From contig JAPLUT010000002.1 in the NCBI GenBank assembly GCA_026397475.1, positions 1-64,000 of the forward strand: a stretch of 64,000 bases of DNA, written 5' to 3'. The notes under the pieces are model-generated. The model ran no database searches and had not been told where the DNA came from. It saw only the letters and a program-made list of their open reading frames with translations. Below, one piece after another: positions 16,362 to 63,083 of the stretch (its first letter is position 1; every line of letters begins with the position of its first letter). The stretch comes from a candidate division SR1 bacterium. Its GTDB lineage: Bacteria; Patescibacteriota; Gracilibacteria; Absconditabacterales; Absconditicoccaceae. The translations under genes were made by a program, and so were the position numbers.

Positions 16362-18782
16362 TTATTTTTCTATCAACGCATAATTGATAATAAATTTTGC
16401 TAAGTCTCAAAATATTTTTCCTGCAGTTGCTCATCACCGAATATTTTGTCTTGGTCTACGTACTTGGATAACAACAACATATTTTGGATCATTTTTGGTT
16501 ATTATGCCCACGAATGATCCGTTTGTCCATCATACACCATTCATATATTTCCCTTTGTACGAAATCTGAGATGTTCAACTTTTTCATCCAAGCTGATATC
16601 ATTCTACTTTAGCATATTTTAGTTCTGAATTTTGATCTATGACACTAAATAATCATACTTTAAGGGCTTCTGCCGTCTCTGGTCTAAAAATTTGTTTAGT
16701 AATTTTAGTTGTTGTAGGATAATAGGTATTGGTTTTTCTATCAAATATTCATTTAATGATAGTAGGTTTGACATAATATCATCAGTTTACAATAGCCCCA
16801 TATCAAGCAGCTAGCTGAATAGGAGTAACAAGCAGTCACTGTCCAAAAGTATTATTGTAGAATCTAGCATCAGAGACAGATGTTACTCATTCTACGAATC
16901 AAGGATCTTCATTAGCGACCTCTATTCAAGTAATTTTACCAAACGCAAGTTTGTCGACATAGTTATAGAAGATTTCTTTTCCTAGTTTTTGAGCTATTCT
17001 GACCATTCATATATTACATGACCACACAAATGCATGTAAAAAATTCCAATCTCACATACACACTTTATCTGCATTGCTAATAGTGAATTGTCCCACTTTT
17101 ACTTTTCATGGATCATTGTAGGGATCGTAGAATCTAATCTCATCGGTATCTAGTCATATGGCAACAGTAAATGCTTTGAACACGCTTCATGGTTCATAGG
17201 CCATAGCAGTATTTTTATCTACTAATACTTGTGGCCCATAGCCATTTTTTGCTATATATTTTGGTATGGTTACATCAATTCTTTCATATGTAGTAGCAAG
17301 CTTATATTCTCATCCCGTTAAAATGTATACAGGATTCTCTATATAACTTAAATCATCAACCATATATCAATATTCTGGTCCAAGAGGTTGCAAGGTAAAT
17401 GCGTCATTATAATTGTTTGGATTATAAGAAGGATAACTCGCCGACGCCTTGATTTGTCAGTTAAAGGGGTCATAAACTAAAACACTAATTGAGTCATCTT
17501 TTAATATGTCATGATAAGCCTTTATTATACTTTCAGCCTCTTTTTGAATCCCAATATCTATAGTAAGGTAGATGTCGTTTCCATCTTGTGCTTCCTGTAG
17601 CTGGAATTCATTGGCTCATACCGGTCAAATCCATGCAGAAGCGCGTCAAACTATTTTTCAATCTTTTCCACGAAGAATATCATCAAAATATTGTTCTACT
17701 CAATAGTATGCATTATTGCTTTTATCTACGAATCACATAACATTAGAAAGAAAAGATCCATATTGATAGTATCTCTTGATGTAGGACTCCATGCCTAGGC
17801 CATGAAGAAGGGGAATTCTATCTTTGGAACGCGTTTGATAATATTTTAGCTTGAGATCTTTTATCTGTTGTGCAATCAATGGATTAGCATTAGAAATAAT
17901 TTTTACATATCTGTTTTCCTGCTTATAAAATGATTTTTCTAAACTAGGAAAATTGTTTAAGTATCAATATTTATCAAGTATCTTTTTTAATGGAACAATG
18001 TCCTTGTTTATAGTCCCAACTCTATCTGGCACTATATATACATAATTTATGCCTTGAACATCGATATAATTGAGATTTACCTTTTTGAGCTCTGTAAGAA
18101 AATTAGTATTGGCAAAAAAACCAAGATAGTTTTTTGGCTTGACGCCTATATAGATCATCTGATTAAGCCTTGTTTTAATTACACTAGCCGCGATATTAGC
18201 GGTGAATCAACTTAATATTTGCTGGAGTTGTAGGGTATATCATGTTTCGTCATAATAGTAATATCATGAAGAAATAATTCCACTACCATAATAAAAAAAT
18301 TGTGGTTTTGGGGGAATTATTTGTGTCTGCGTAAATTGCTCTATATTATGAACGCACTCAATTTTAGTGACGTCTTTCATGCCATAAAGCTCACAAAAGT
18401 GGTTATATACGACAGGAGCAATAATATCAATAAATTTTTCTTTATCCCAGATGAACTTTGGATCTACAAAGATATTATACATAGCAATGTTGTCGGTAAG
18501 TTGAATGTGTTTTTCTGCTTTATCATCTGCGAAAACATTTCATCTTTTTGCTTGAAGAGAGGTCTCACTTACATGCTGTTTATTTAGAAGCGTATCATAA
18601 AAATTATGTTGTATTATTTGAAGATAGAATAATCTAAGTATTAATATCAAAAATAAAAATCAGAAAAAAGAGAGTAAATAAAAATCCTTAGTTACTTTTA
18701 TATATTTTAAAAAAGTTTTGGTCTGTAGCCAATGTTCTAACTCCTGATCGAAAGTTTTATTATGTGATTGCGATCTTAGCAT
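16362..18782 (-). CDS. Penicillin-binding protein, class B transpeptidase
   Basis: An 806-aa protein with a cytoplasmic N-terminus, one membrane anchor (about 38-58), a long extracytoplasmic PBP-dimer region and a transpeptidase domain with SxxK at Ser533-Lys536 (EPGSVFKAF), SxN at Ser588 (WSCNIG) and KSG at Lys734 (GGKSGTS). It cross-links peptidoglycan, either as division FtsI or elongation PBP2. The region before the catalytic serine is about 200 residues longer than usual, and no PASTA domain is present. The glycine in KSG and in PGS is TGA. Start ATG at 18782. Confidence 0.93.
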
Positions 18783-23520: not shown

Positions 23521-23538
23521 ATTTTGTATCACAATAGG

Positions 23539-24930
23539 ATGAAACAAAAGTACAATATCTTACTCCGTCTATTTAGACCAGTGCTTCACCTTGGTATAAT
23601 TATTTTAGTATTCTATGTGATGTATAGAGTACGTCTTTTCACTGATTTGATACCAGGAATTCAGCTTAAGATACCTGTAATAAATTACCAAGAGAACATG
23701 GCATTTGGCATAATAGCAGCATTCGCATTTGTATGTATAGGTATTGTAAAAGATCTTTATGAGTTACACAAACCTATTCAAAGATATTTTCAAACATTTA
23801 GCAAAACTCGATTATATCGGATTATTGTTATTACTTTTATATGATATTTTGGACAAGGATTTGTTTTCTTTTTTTGAATATCAAGATTTATAATCGTATT
23901 AGGAGCTTTAGTCAGTTTTATAACATTATTTCTATTTGATCAGATACGAAATTATTTGGAAGCAAAAAGACATAGAGATGGAAACAACAAAATACTTATA
24001 GTAGGAAGTGATGCATTAGAAAGTTACAAAGCTATAGAAAAAATAAAAAGTGGATTTTCATTTAAAACAGAATTCGCTAGTCACAATGACATTAAAGATA
24101 TAGATATTACAAAATATTTTATTGTGGTTGCAGTAGGAAGCTTTGAAAAAGAAGTTCTCCAGTGAATTTTCGAGAGAGTAAGATTTAGCGATAACACAAG
24201 ATTTTATCATATCAGTGAAGGATTCTTTTTGGAAGATGTTGTTTATTCTCCAGAGAATATAGACAATATAATAGCATTAGAATACAAACACTCAAGGCTT
24301 GATGGACGATCTATTATACTCAAAAAAATATTTGATCTTATCTCAGCAGCATTCTTGATCATCATCACACTACCATTCATGGTTTTGATAGCAATTTTTA
24401 TAAAAATAGATTCGCGTGGACCTATACTTTATAGATCAAAGAGAGTTGGAAAGCAGGGAGAGTTGTTTAGCTTCTTTAAGTTTCGTACGATGTACACCCA
24501 CATGAGTGTGGGATATTGAGGAGAACAAGCAGATGCACTATATCAAAAATTAATTCAATCAGATGCAAATGTTAGACCAGGAGTATTACCAAAAATAGCA
24601 GATGATCCAAGAGTTACAAGATTAGGTAGGTTTTTAAGAAAAACATCATTGGATGAACTCCCACAATTATTTTGCGTGCTTCGATGAACGATGTCACTTG
24701 TCTGACCGAGACCCCATCTTCCGAGCGAAGTAAAAAATTATGAATTACGACAAAAGAGATTGTTATCTATCAAGCCAGGGATAACTTGATATGCACAAGT
24801 ATTTGGAAGAGATAATTTAGACTTTGAAGAAGAAGCAAAACTGGATTTATATTACATTCAAAATCGATCCCTCTTCTTAGATGCATATATTATTCTAGCT
24901 ACTTTTTGAGTAGTATTTAAAGGAAAATAA
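23539..24930 (+). CDS. Polyprenyl-phosphate sugar-1-phosphate transferase (WbaP/WcaJ type)
   Basis: A 463-aa protein. N-terminal membrane segments (about 12-145), a Rossmann-like region with [14 protein letters not shown], another membrane helix (about 275-300) and the C-terminal bacterial sugar transferase domain: [44 protein letters not shown] and KPGITGYAQV. It should transfer a sugar-1-phosphate from a nucleotide sugar to undecaprenyl phosphate, starting a surface glycan. A CGA codon at 24307-24309 (LDG[10 protein letters not shown]) occupies a usual Trp position. TTG at 23524 is an unlikely earlier start. Confidence 0.93.
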
Positions 24931-34926: not shown

Positions 34927-35130
34927 ATGCTAAAATTCTTCCGAGATCTAATTATTTATCCTTTTGATTCTCACAAAGAAACAAATAAATTTGCTGGATT
35001 CCTCAAAATGACCTTCAAGGAATATCCTGCATTCCTCTGGGTAAAACCGAGCTTAAAAAAGGTCCTTGTATTTCCGTTTATCATGCTCTATTGTATTTTC
35101 AAAGGAAAGGCACCAATAGACAAGAGGTAG
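34927..35130 (+). CDS. Small basic protein of unknown function
   Basis: A 67-aa protein, MLKFFRDLIIYPFDSHKETN at the start, with about 17 basic residues and a hydrophobic stretch near 42-57 (KVLVFPFIMLYCIFKG). It could associate with the membrane. No TGA codon interrupts it. It lies 30 bases upstream of the DUF218 gene and may share its transcript. I recognise no family; the evidence is an open frame in a good position with an ATG. Confidence 0.55.
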   Translation: MLKFFRDLIIYPFDSHKETNKFAGFLKMTFKEYPAFLWVKPSLKKVLVFPFIMLYCIFKGKAPIDKR

Positions 35131-35159
35131 TATGTATTTTTATTACTTTAATTAAGATA

Positions 35160-35813
35160 ATGACAGAAGAAATTTTGGAATTATCTAAAATTCTTTGGGA
35201 CTATCACCATCTCAATCATATATTAGAAAAAAGCGATATCATTATGGTGCTTTGATCGCAAGACATAAGAGTTGCCAAGAGATGAGTCGAATTATACAAA
35301 CAATGATTAGCTGATAAAATACTTTTTTCTTGATGAATAGGGAGACTCACACAAGCAGATAAAAAATTTCAATGAACAACAGAAGCTGATAGGTTTGCAG
35401 AAATAGCAATTGAAAGCTGAATCCCAAAGGAAAAAATCATCATAGAAAACAAGTCTACCAATACATGAGAGAATATAATTTTTTCTGCTGCTCTCATAAA
35501 AGATTTGGGGATTACAAGCATTATCATAGTTCAGAAACCTTATATGGAAAGAAGGACATTCGCAACGTTTTCGAAACAACGGCCTTGAGCCAAGGTTGAA
35601 TTTTATATAGCATCACCGCAAGTATCATTCAAGAAATATCCTAATGAGAATATATCGCTAGAAACATTAATAAATATGATGGTATGAGATATGCAAAGAA
35701 TAATAGAATACCCAGCCAAATGATTTCAAATCTATCAAGAAATTCCTGAGAATGTTATGATAGCATATAATAAATTAATAGCGTTCTGATTCACGAAAAA
35801 TTTAGCGAAATAA
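35160..35813 (+). CDS. DUF218/YdcF-like protein
   Basis: A 217-aa protein with the DUF218 order: DIIMVLGSQDIRVAKRGVEL, KILFSGGIGRLTQ, STNTGENIIFSAALIKDLG and KPYMERRTFATFSKQ. The family includes ElyC, SanA and YdcF proteins linked to envelope polysaccharide biology; no signal peptide is present here, so a cytoplasmic YdcF type is favoured. The CGG codon at 35580-35582 follows FSKQ and precedes Pro, where I expect Trp (QWP) in close relatives. This is the best CGG = Trp site in the window. TGA glycines occur in the SGGIG and LGS motifs. Confidence 0.88.
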
Positions 35814-55021: not shown

Positions 55022-55092
55022 CAGGGTGAGTAGGAATCGAACCTACATCGCTGGTTTCGGAAACCAGCATTCTACCACTTAACTATCACCCT
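55022..55092 (-). tRNA. tRNA-Trp-like gene with anticodon CCG
   Basis: The 71-base cloverleaf read on the minus strand has acceptor AGGGTGA/TCACCCT, discriminator G73, D arm GTTAAGTGGTAGAAT, anticodon arm CTGGT-TTCCGAA-ACCAG with CCG at 55060-55058, and T arm GTAGG-TTCGATT-CCTAC. CCA is not encoded. A1-U72, G73 and the loop TTCC-x-AA match bacterial tRNA-Trp (usually CCA), and U20 rather than A20 argues against tRNA-Arg. A CCG anticodon reads CGG, so this tRNA should deliver Trp at CGG codons. By anticodon alone it would be called tRNA-Arg(CCG). Confidence 0.9.
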
Positions 55093-55758: not shown

Positions 55759-57078
55759 ATGGTCGATATTGATTACAAAGCAAAATTAGATGAAGCGGTC
55801 GTACAATCAGATGTGGTGAAAATTTTTGATAATCTTTTGACAGTTGCTGTAGAATCAGAAGCATCAGATATTCATATTGAACCACTAGAAAACTACTGCA
55901 GAATCAGAATCAGAATTGATGGGATATTGCAAGAACTTGTTCAATACCCAAAAAACCTTCATGAGAGTATTATCTCAAAATTTAAAATAGAGTCTGGACA
56001 AATGAGGCCAGATGAAAAAAGAGTTCCACAAGATGCTAGAGTATCAAGCGTTACCTTAACCAACAAAGAAATAGATCTTCGTGCAAACACTTTCCCAAGC
56101 GTATGGGGAGAATGTCTCGTAATGCGTATTGTCGACAAATCAAAAAGAATTCCCCCATTGGAAAAATTAGGGATAGAAGGAAGCAACAAAGACATCATCT
56201 TTAGACATCTCAAATATCCAAACGGGATTATCCTTATGACAGGACCTACAGGTTCAGGTAAAACTACGACACTTTACGCGTGTCTTGATTATGTAAATAC
56301 CACAGCAGTGAATATTATAACCTACGAAGATCCGGTCGAAAATAAAATGGCAGGACTCAATCAAGCGCAGATTAGATCTGACATTGGGTTTACCTTTGCT
56401 AATGGTCTTAGAGGAGGACTAAGACAAGATCCAGACATTATGATGGTATGAGAAATCCGTGATAGAGAAACGCTTGATATGGCAATGGAATCAGCCATGA
56501 CAGGACATTTGGTATTTTCAACCGTACATACGAATTCATCATCAGAAACCATAACAAGAGTATATAATCTCTGAGCAAAGCCTTATATGATCGTAGGAAC
56601 ATTTAACTTGGTAATGGCAGAAAGATTGATAAGAAGAGTCTGTGATCACTGTAAAATACATACCTCAGTAAAAGATAATCCAAAATATAAATTTGCCAGA
56701 GAAAGTTTCAGAAATTTTGATAAAGAGGCGCTTAAAAAAGAAATTCTTAGTAGAGGAATAAACCAACAACAACGAAATGATTTTGTAAACAATGCGATGA
56801 TATACACAGGAAGTGGGAAAGATCCCGCAAGTTGAGAAAAATGTTCTGTATGTAATGGAACAGGATATAAGTGAAGAGTTGGTCTATTTGAAATGATGGA
56901 CTATACCGATGAGATAAAAAATCTTCTCTTAGAAGGGAAATCATCGTTTGAAGTAGAAAGCGCAGCCCTACAAAAGGGAATGATAAATCTAGAAAGAGAT
57001 GGAGTATTTAAAATCATAAAAGGAATGACAACATTAGACGAAGTATACAGATACGTAAAAGCAAAATTTGATAATTAA
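55759..57078 (+). CDS. pilB: Type IV pilus assembly ATPase PilB (GspE family)
   Basis: A 439-aa secretion ATPase with ASDIHIEP, the Walker A motif [13 protein letters not shown] (from Gly162), ITYEDPVE (Asp box), DPDIMMVGEIRDRET (Walker B; the VGE glycine is TGA), [11 protein letters not shown] (His box) and a four-Cys zinc motif (CDHC ... CSVC). It powers pilus extension. The usual N-terminal N1/MshEN domain (about 130-180 residues) is absent, so it is shorter than standard PilB. pilC follows 33 bases downstream; no pilT is in the window. Confidence 0.95.
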
Positions 57079-60963: not shown

Positions 60964-61695
60964 ATGCTTTCAACAAAAAACTTATCCGTAGAAGTAGACA
61001 ATAAAATAATCATAGATTCGATTTCTATGAATTTCGAACTTGGAAAAAATTACTGCATCATAGGGAAAAATGGTTCTGGGAAATCCTCACTAGCGATGAC
61101 AATTATGGGACATCCAAAATATATTCTTAGTAGTGGAGATATTTTAGTAGACAAAAAATCTATTACAAAATTAGATCCTCATGAAAGAGCAAAATTAGGT
61201 ATATTTGTCGCATTTCAACATATCCCTGAAATTAAATGAATTAAACTATTTGAGTTTCTTAAATCAATATATGATGCAAAAAACGACATCGCTACATCAT
61301 TTTTGAGTTTCAAAAATATAGTAAAGCCTATTATGGAAGAACTCTCAATTAATGTAGAATTTCTTCGAAGAGATCTTAATGTGGGATTCAGCGGGGGAGA
61401 GAGAAGAAAGATAGAAATACTTCAATTAAAATTATTAGAACCTAAATATATTTTTTTAGATGAAATAGATAGTGGGTTAGATGTAGATGCCTTCAAGTCT
61501 GTAGCGAAAATGATGGCTAAATTAAATCATGAAAAAAATAGTTTTATTGTAATCACCCATATTTTTGATATTTTAAAACATATACCCGTTGATCAAGTAT
61601 ATGTCTTAGAAAAAGGAAAAATCATAAAAGAATGAACCCAAGAATTAATCAAGAAAATTAAGAAAGAATGATTTACTGATATACAAAAAAATTAA
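60964..61695 (+). CDS. sufC: Fe-S cluster assembly ATPase SufC
   Basis: A 243-aa ABC-type ATPase with IIGKNGSGKSSLAMTIMG (Walker A), VAFQHIPEIKG (Q-loop, SufC-type), VGFSGGERRKIEILQLK (signature) and YIFLDEIDSGLD (Walker B). The GGER(R)K and EIDSGLD forms are diagnostic of SufC. It pairs with SufB, encoded 2 bases downstream, in the scaffold complex for Fe-S clusters. The Gly after EIK and in KEG are TGA. Confidence 0.96.
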
Positions 61696-61697
61696 AC

Positions 61698-63083
61698 ATG
61701 TCTCTAAAAAACACACTCGAATCATCAGATAAAATTAAATATGAACTCTACCTTACAGGACTCAACGAAGAGACTGTCAGGAAAATTTCTGCTGATCAAA
61801 AAGAACCGGAACGAATGTTAGATCATCGTTTACAGTGTTTAAAAATTTTTAATGACATGAAGCTTCCTACACGATGACCGGACCTTTCTGGACTTAGTTT
61901 GCAGGACATTGTCTACTACGCAAAACCTCATCAAGAACAAAAATGATATGCAAACGATCGAGAAGATGTTCCAGGAGAAATCAAAGAAAAGTTCAAAAGA
62001 CTTTGAATACCTGAAGCAGAACAAAAATATCTCGCTTGAGCAGGAGGGCAGTATGATTCTCTTAATGTTTATCATCAAATAAAAGAAAAGCGATCATCAA
62101 AAGGAATTATTTTTGAAGATATGCCACAAGCCGTTATCAAATACCCTGAACTAGTAAAAAAGCATTTTATGAAATTAGTGACGCCCAACGATCATATGTT
62201 TGCGGCATTACATGGTGCAGTTCGAAGCTGAGGGACGTTTATTCATGTACCTAAAGGAGTTAGACTTACCGATCCCCTGCAAGCATACTTTCGTATGAAT
62301 ACCTATGGAGGAGGACAATTTGAGCACACTATGATCATTATAGATGATGATGCGGAATGAAGTTATATCGAATGATGTTCAGCGCCAAAATTTGACAAAG
62401 CGTCTCTTCATGCAGGACTTGTAGAGGTTTTCGTAGGAAAAAATTCAAAAATGAAATACTCATCCGTAGAAAATTGGTCAACAAATACTTATAATTTAAA
62501 TACTAAAAGAGCGATAATAGAGGAGCATGGCTATATGGAATGGGTGAATGGGAATCTATGATCTCACACAACAATGCTTTATCCTTGTTCAATCTTGAAG
62601 GGAGATTATAGCAAGACAGATATGCTCGGAATAGCGGTAGCAGGAGAATGACAACATCAAGACACATGATCAAAAGCAATTCACATAGGAAAATACACTT
62701 CATCAAATATCGTAGCAAAATCTATTTCTAGAAAATGAGGAATCAACACCTATCGCTGACTGGTAACTATAGGACCAGGAGCAGATTATGCGAGTAATCA
62801 CACACAGTGCGATGCCTTACTCTTCGACGACACATCAACGTCTAATACCATACCTGACATCAAATCTAGCAATGACACAGCTATTGTAGCCCACGAAGCA
62901 AGCGCAGGAAAAATAGATGAATCTGAACTTTTCTACCTCATGGCTCGCTGACTAACAAAGGACAAAGCAATCACCATGATCGTAAATGGATTCTTTTCTT
63001 CCGTAATAAAAAAACTCCCTCTAGAATATGCAGGAGAATTAAATAAATTAGTAGAGTTAGAAATGGAAGGAAGTATAGGATAA
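61698..63083 (+). CDS. sufB: Fe-S cluster assembly scaffold SufB
   Basis: A 461-aa SufB with [48 protein letters not shown] (SufB Cys), [25 protein letters not shown] and [20 protein letters not shown]. Three CGA codons fall on conserved Trp positions: LPT-x-GPDLSGL (61872-61874), ND-x-EDVPGEI (61959-61961) and GAV-x-SGGTF (62223-62225). A standard translation would give Arg at all three. CGC serves as Arg at MARGL and TYRGL. SufD, SufS and SufU are not in the window. Confidence 0.97.

What the first reader, a model, noticed from the sequence alone, without database searches (positions are those of the whole stretch)
55022..55092. A tRNA with tRNA-Trp features but a CCG anticodon
Seen: A1-U72 pair, G73, U20 and anticodon loop TTCCGAA, which differs from a tRNA-Trp loop by one base (CCA to CCG). 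A tRNA of this type would read CGG as Trp, matching the CGG at 35580. Because C34 cannot normally read CGA, CGA codons need either another tRNA (UCG) or a modified C34.
Basis: partly seen in the sequence, partly recalled or inferred. Interest (0 to 1): 0.88.

Follow-up and report, generated by a model that had tools for sequence, protein, structure and literature searches.

The report
Tryptophan tRNA reading an arginine codon
This bacterium (Absconditabacterales, candidate division SR1) carries a tRNA that should insert tryptophan at the codon CGG, which normally means arginine; it is real, but it belongs to an alternative genetic code already published in 2021.

Summary
Confirmed, and already known. 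Window 55022-55092 (minus strand) is an intact tRNA with anticodon CCG, A1:U72, G73, U20 and a 5-bp anticodon stem. The genome is an Absconditabacterales (SR1) bacterium: its best named matches are SR1 genomes, and RAAC1_SR1 is a relative. UGA is read as sense (Gly) throughout.

Codon comparison settles the meaning. Across 159 orthologues, CGA aligns in RAAC1_SR1 with UGG 102 times, CGA 60 and Arg codons 0. CGG aligns with UGG 6 times, Arg 0. AGA aligns with Arg 611 and Trp 0.

Trp-type CCG and UCG tRNAs occur throughout the order (43/43 and 47/47); nearly all sampled outgroups are Arg-type.

Shulgina & Eddy 2021 (PMC8629427) described this code. Modest additions: CGA is the commonest Trp codon here (51%; UGG 45%, CGG 4.5%), above their reported ceiling. 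In sister Gracilibacteria, CCG tRNAs are Trp-like while the UCG tRNAs found are Arg-like, suggesting CGG moved first.

The parts
55022..55092 (-). tRNA with anticodon CCG, predicted tRNA-Trp(CCG); A1:U72, G73, U20, 5-bp anticodon stem, 4-nt variable loop
55058..55060 (-). anticodon CCG, reads codon CGG
   Evidence: sequence
55759..57078 (+). pilB/GspE-type ATPase gene (Pfam T2SSE); the tRNA lies just upstream of it in this genome and in at least 9 relatives
35580..35582 (+). in-frame CGG codon in a DUF218 gene (35091-35813), context SKQ-CGG-PGA
61668..63083 (+). sufB gene with five CGA codons; EPE-CGA-ML and AV-CGA-SGG align with UGG in RAAC1_SR1, and EPE-CGA-ML with Trp in solved SufB (5awf)
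23524..24930 (+). sugar transferase gene; five of its six CGA codons and its one CGG align with UGG in RAAC1_SR1; the CGA at 24865 aligns with Trp in solved WbaP
16437..16439 (-). CGG codon in a penicillin-binding-protein gene, aligned with UGG in RAAC1_SR1

Best explanation
The tRNA is a tryptophan acceptor that reads CGG. With a separate Trp-type tRNA-UCG (which reads CGA and, by wobble, CGG) and the ordinary tRNA-Trp(CCA) for UGG, it carries out the Absconditabacterales genetic code: CGA and CGG = Trp, UGA = Gly. Arginine is written with AGA, AGG, CGU and CGC and read by tRNAs UCU, CCU and GCG. Shown here: the tRNA set, the identity elements, and the codon meanings by comparison. Inferred: charging by the genome's single TrpRS and rejection by ArgRS (no A20).
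For: Codon exchange in 159 reciprocal-best orthologues with RAAC1_SR1: own CGA to UGG 102, CGA 60, Arg 0, Lys 1; own CGG to UGG 6, Arg 0; own AGA to Arg 611, Trp 0. In the window, aligned CGR codons meet UGG 22 times, CGA 24 times and an Arg codon never. Masked CGR positions fall on Trp in distant solved proteins: SufB twice, WbaP once. Own tRNAs: CCA, CCG and UCG with G73 and U20; Arg tRNAs with A20 and A73. In the order all 43 CCG tRNAs parsed have A1:U72 and G73, and all 47 UCG tRNAs have G73 and not A20. Only two PF00579 proteins, identified by sequence as TyrRS and TrpRS, so one TrpRS. Lineage SR1. Published code for this clade.
Against: No proteomics or charging data. TrpRS normally uses the anticodon CCA as identity, so G36 and U34 must be tolerated; eight fixed TrpRS differences from outgroups were seen, but none is tied to anticodon reading. 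CGG is rare (27 codons in 159 genes), so its own evidence is thinner than for CGA. Eight of the 47 UCG tRNAs in the order have G1:C72 rather than A/G1:U72.
Confidence: 0.95

Rival explanations
1. It is an ordinary tRNA-Arg(CCG), as the automatic label says, and CGG remains arginine.
For: Anticodon CCG pairs with CGG; ARAGORN labels it Arg.
Against: No A20 and G73 rather than A73, unlike the genome's Arg tRNAs; CGG and CGA never align with Arg codons in 159 orthologues.
Confidence: 0.01
2. CGA and CGG are read ambiguously, mostly as Trp but partly as Arg, because tRNA-GCG or leftover ArgRS activity competes.
For: CGG is rare and tRNA identity rests on few elements; no tool result points to it directly.
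Against: No Arg partner among 137 informative CGA or CGG sites; no Arg-type CCG or UCG tRNA found in the genome.
Confidence: 0.03
3. The tRNA is a leftover or pseudogene, and tRNA-UCG alone reads CGA and CGG.
For: UCG can wobble to CGG; no CCG match was found in G022 (96% complete), which has UCG; CGG is rare here.
Against: The gene is fully paired, scores 67.5 bits, is conserved in nearly all genera and keeps its place beside pilB.
Confidence: 0.04

Closest known systems
Absconditabacteria (SR1) genetic code of Shulgina & Eddy 2021, PMC8629427 (NCBI table 37, from memory)
   Same: CGA and CGG to Trp, UGA to Gly, tRNAs UCG and CCG with Trp features, GCG for CGU/CGC, Arg mostly AGA, low GC.
   Different: CGA is the most frequent Trp codon here (52 per 10,000 in conserved genes, against under 37 reported for all their species in Pfam-aligned regions).
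Anaerococcus and RFN20 Bacilli codes: CGG to Trp (PMC8629427)
   Same: Trp-like tRNA-CCG reads CGG as Trp.
   Different: There CGA stays Arg and tRNA-UCG is missing; here a Trp-type tRNA-UCG exists and CGA is Trp.
Gracilibacteria (sister order, UGA to Gly)
   Same: Some genomes carry tRNA-CCG with A1:U72 and G73.
   Different: The UCG tRNAs found there are Arg-type (A20, A73); most genomes gave no match to the CCG pattern.

Membership tests
Absconditabacterales genetic code (CGA, CGG = Trp; UGA = Gly) | CGA translated as Trp | tested here: met
   102 of 126 informative sites are UGG, 0 Arg
Absconditabacterales genetic code (CGA, CGG = Trp; UGA = Gly) | CGG translated as Trp | tested here: met
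   6 of 11 informative sites are UGG, 0 Arg; fewer sites
Absconditabacterales genetic code (CGA, CGG = Trp; UGA = Gly) | UGA is sense, with a tRNA-Gly(UCA) | tested here: met
   About 500 in-frame UGA in window genes; tRNA-UCA with G1, C2, G3 and U73
Absconditabacterales genetic code (CGA, CGG = Trp; UGA = Gly) | Lineage is Absconditabacterales/SR1 | tested here: met
   PilB 82-90% to SR1 MAGs from Lac Pavin, 75% to RAAC1_SR1
tRNA-Trp | G73 and A/G1:U72, not A20 | tested here: met
tRNA-Trp | CCA anticodon (standard tRNA-Trp) | tested here: not met
   Anticodon is CCG; the genome has a separate CCA gene. So it is a Trp-type tRNA of the altered code, not a standard tRNA-Trp.
tRNA-Trp | Charged by TrpRS | not testable with these tools
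   needs an aminoacylation assay
tRNA-Arg | A20 (major Arg identity element) | tested here: not met
   U20

The most novel reading that the evidence does not exclude
The reassignment was stepwise. CGG was taken over first, by a Trp-type tRNA-CCG, before Absconditabacterales and Gracilibacteria split. CGA followed only in Absconditabacterales, when the Arg tRNA-UCG was replaced by a Trp-type tRNA-UCG. In this species CGA has since become the main tryptophan codon.
Probability: 0.35. Interest if true: 0.45.

Novelty: already known. Interest (0 to 1): 0.3.

Why it matters
Sense-codon reassignments in bacteria are few and were first found in 2021. Proteins from this lineage are mistranslated in public annotation unless CGA, CGG and UGA are reread. 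A genome in which CGA is used more than UGG for Trp would be a good subject for proteomic proof, since about half of all Trp sites would test the reassignment. The tRNA survey gives a testable order of events for how two Arg codons changed meaning.

Tried and rejected
An apparent block of 18 Arg partners for one CGA codon came from a spurious ORF antisense to pilB, judged by inspection, and was excluded; later counts used non-overlapping ORFs and reciprocal best hits. Origin by mutation of a tRNA-Trp gene: whole-body identity does not single out tRNA-Trp, so left open. A second, specialised TrpRS: only one TrpRS found. A first, loose anticodon pattern gave mostly chance matches and was tightened. 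Arg-type CCG and UCG tRNAs in G003 and G030 (L154, L230) were treated as likely MAG contamination, unproven. PDB matches for GyrA, MiaB and LigA were too distant to place Trp.

Full report
Observation. The window holds one tRNA gene, on the minus strand at 55022-55092, anticodon CCG. The Rfam tRNA model scores it 67.5 bits. It has A1:U72, G73, U20, a 7-bp acceptor stem, a 5-bp anticodon stem and loop UUCCGAA. This genome's tRNA-Trp loop is CUCCAAA, so two loop bases differ here, not one.

Genome context. The window lies in a 1.17 Mb genome in 8 contigs, 99.6% complete, GC about 0.31. UGA is a sense codon: about 500 in-frame UGA in window genes, and a tRNA-UCA with glycine features. The PilB protein next to the tRNA is up to 90% identical to candidate division SR1 genomes from Lac Pavin and 75% to RAAC1_SR1, so this is Absconditabacterales. 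In at least nine relatives a CCG tRNA sits just upstream of pilB.

The tRNA set. The genome has tRNA-Trp(CCA), tRNA-CCG, tRNA-UCG, and Arg-type GCG, UCU and CCU tRNAs; ACG was not found. The Arg tRNAs have A20 and A73. CCA, CCG and UCG have U20 and G73; position 1:72 is A:U in CCA and CCG, and G:U in UCG.

Codon meaning. About 0.5 Mb of this genome was compared with 0.8 Mb of RAAC1_SR1, with CGA and CGG masked in the alignment. In 159 reciprocal-best pairs, at sites with conserved flanks, own CGA meets UGG 102 times, CGA 60, CGG 1, aromatic or other residues in small numbers, Lys once and Arg never. Own CGG meets UGG 6 times and Arg never. Own AGA meets Arg 611 times; Trp does not appear among its listed partners. 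Within the window, aligned CGA and CGG codons meet UGG (22) or CGA (24) and no Arg codon. Two SufB sites and one sugar-transferase site also fall on Trp in distant solved proteins. RAAC1_SR1 shares the code, so the exchange test shows synonymy with UGG; that UGG is Trp rests on the normal tRNA-Trp(CCA) and on the solved-protein matches.

Codon use. In the 159 conserved genes the Trp codons are CGA 305, UGG 271 and CGG 27, that is 50.6, 44.9 and 4.5% (52.2, 46.4 and 4.6 per 10,000). In RAAC1_SR1 they are 32.7, 65.1 and 2.1%. Shulgina and Eddy gave CGA below 37 per 10,000 for all their Absconditabacteria, measured in Pfam-aligned regions, so the comparison is approximate. Short loci from other species show CGA shares from 0 to about 0.6, on small counts. 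CGG is the minor codon, so tRNA-CCG serves few sites.

Survey. In 49 genomes of the order, 43 CCG tRNAs parsed cleanly and all have A1:U72, G73 and A37, and none has A20; 47 UCG tRNAs all have G73 and none has A20; 30 CCA tRNAs have A1:U72 and G73. Some genomes gave no CCG match; one likely reason is a variant T-loop missed by the pattern, as in L072. In 20 CCG and 20 UCG tRNAs from other families of the class nearly all are Arg-type (A20; A73 in all but one). The exceptions are CCG tRNAs of G101 and G059 (A1:U72, G73), from families f14 and f12, whose TrpRS genes also contain in-frame UGA. A second survey of that order found four more A1:U72, G73 CCG tRNAs in f14, one of them (G215) in a 2.7 Mb bin that may be contaminated, and only Arg-type UCG tRNAs. 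In f14 the genomes with Trp-like CCG gave no clear UCG tRNA; one match, in G229, was not parsed. This suggests, without proving it, that CGG changed before CGA.

Mechanism. Shown: gene set, identity elements, codon meaning. Inferred from established tRNA biology: TrpRS charges tRNA-CCG and tRNA-UCG through G73 and the acceptor end; ArgRS does not, for want of A20. There is one TrpRS. Eight alignment positions are fixed in four Absconditabacterales TrpRS and differ from 18 outgroups; whether any touches the anticodon is unknown.

Known work. Shulgina and Eddy 2021 predicted CGA and CGG to Trp in Absconditabacteria, with tRNA-UCG and tRNA-CCG reading them, and noted mixed CGG meaning in Gracilibacteria. 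A 2026 paper reports that CCG tRNAs in Absconditabacterales have 5-bp anticodon stems, as here. The finding is therefore an instance of a published code. The new points are small: the high CGA share, the wider tRNA survey, and the hint of a stepwise order.

Noticed in passing
Gracilibacteria-like family f14: L423, L425, L426, L427 (CCG) against L467-L470 and L305 (UCG): CCG tRNAs are Trp-like (A1:U72, G73) with an unusual D-loop (AAUUGAAAG or AAUUCGAAG), while UCG tRNAs are Arg-like; the two were not found in the same genome with these patterns.
   Followed up: partly
L256 and L258 (G006, G008, same genus as the window): tRNA-Trp(CCA) with a C31-A39 mismatch, a 4-bp anticodon stem, in UGA = Gly organisms, where misreading of UGA as Trp would be a risk. 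PMC13092985 reports four such genomes in this class; these may be among them.
   Followed up: partly
L162 (G012): tRNA-CCG with mismatches at 31:39 (C-A) and 27:43, so a shortened anticodon stem, unlike the 5-bp stems reported for the order.
   Followed up: no
G010:C55:79460-79488: A second tRNA-like match with loop CUCCAAA and a 4-nt variable loop, resembling a tRNA-CCG body with a CCA anticodon.
   Followed up: no
L033:14-105, next to tRNA-Arg(GCG): ARAGORN reports an extra 92-nt Arg(GCG)-like gene with a long insert beside the normal one; possibly a degenerate copy.
   Followed up: no
L077 (PilB locus): In this relative CGG outnumbers CGA and UGG among Trp codons (15, 9, 4 in conserved genes), unlike its neighbours.
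   Followed up: no
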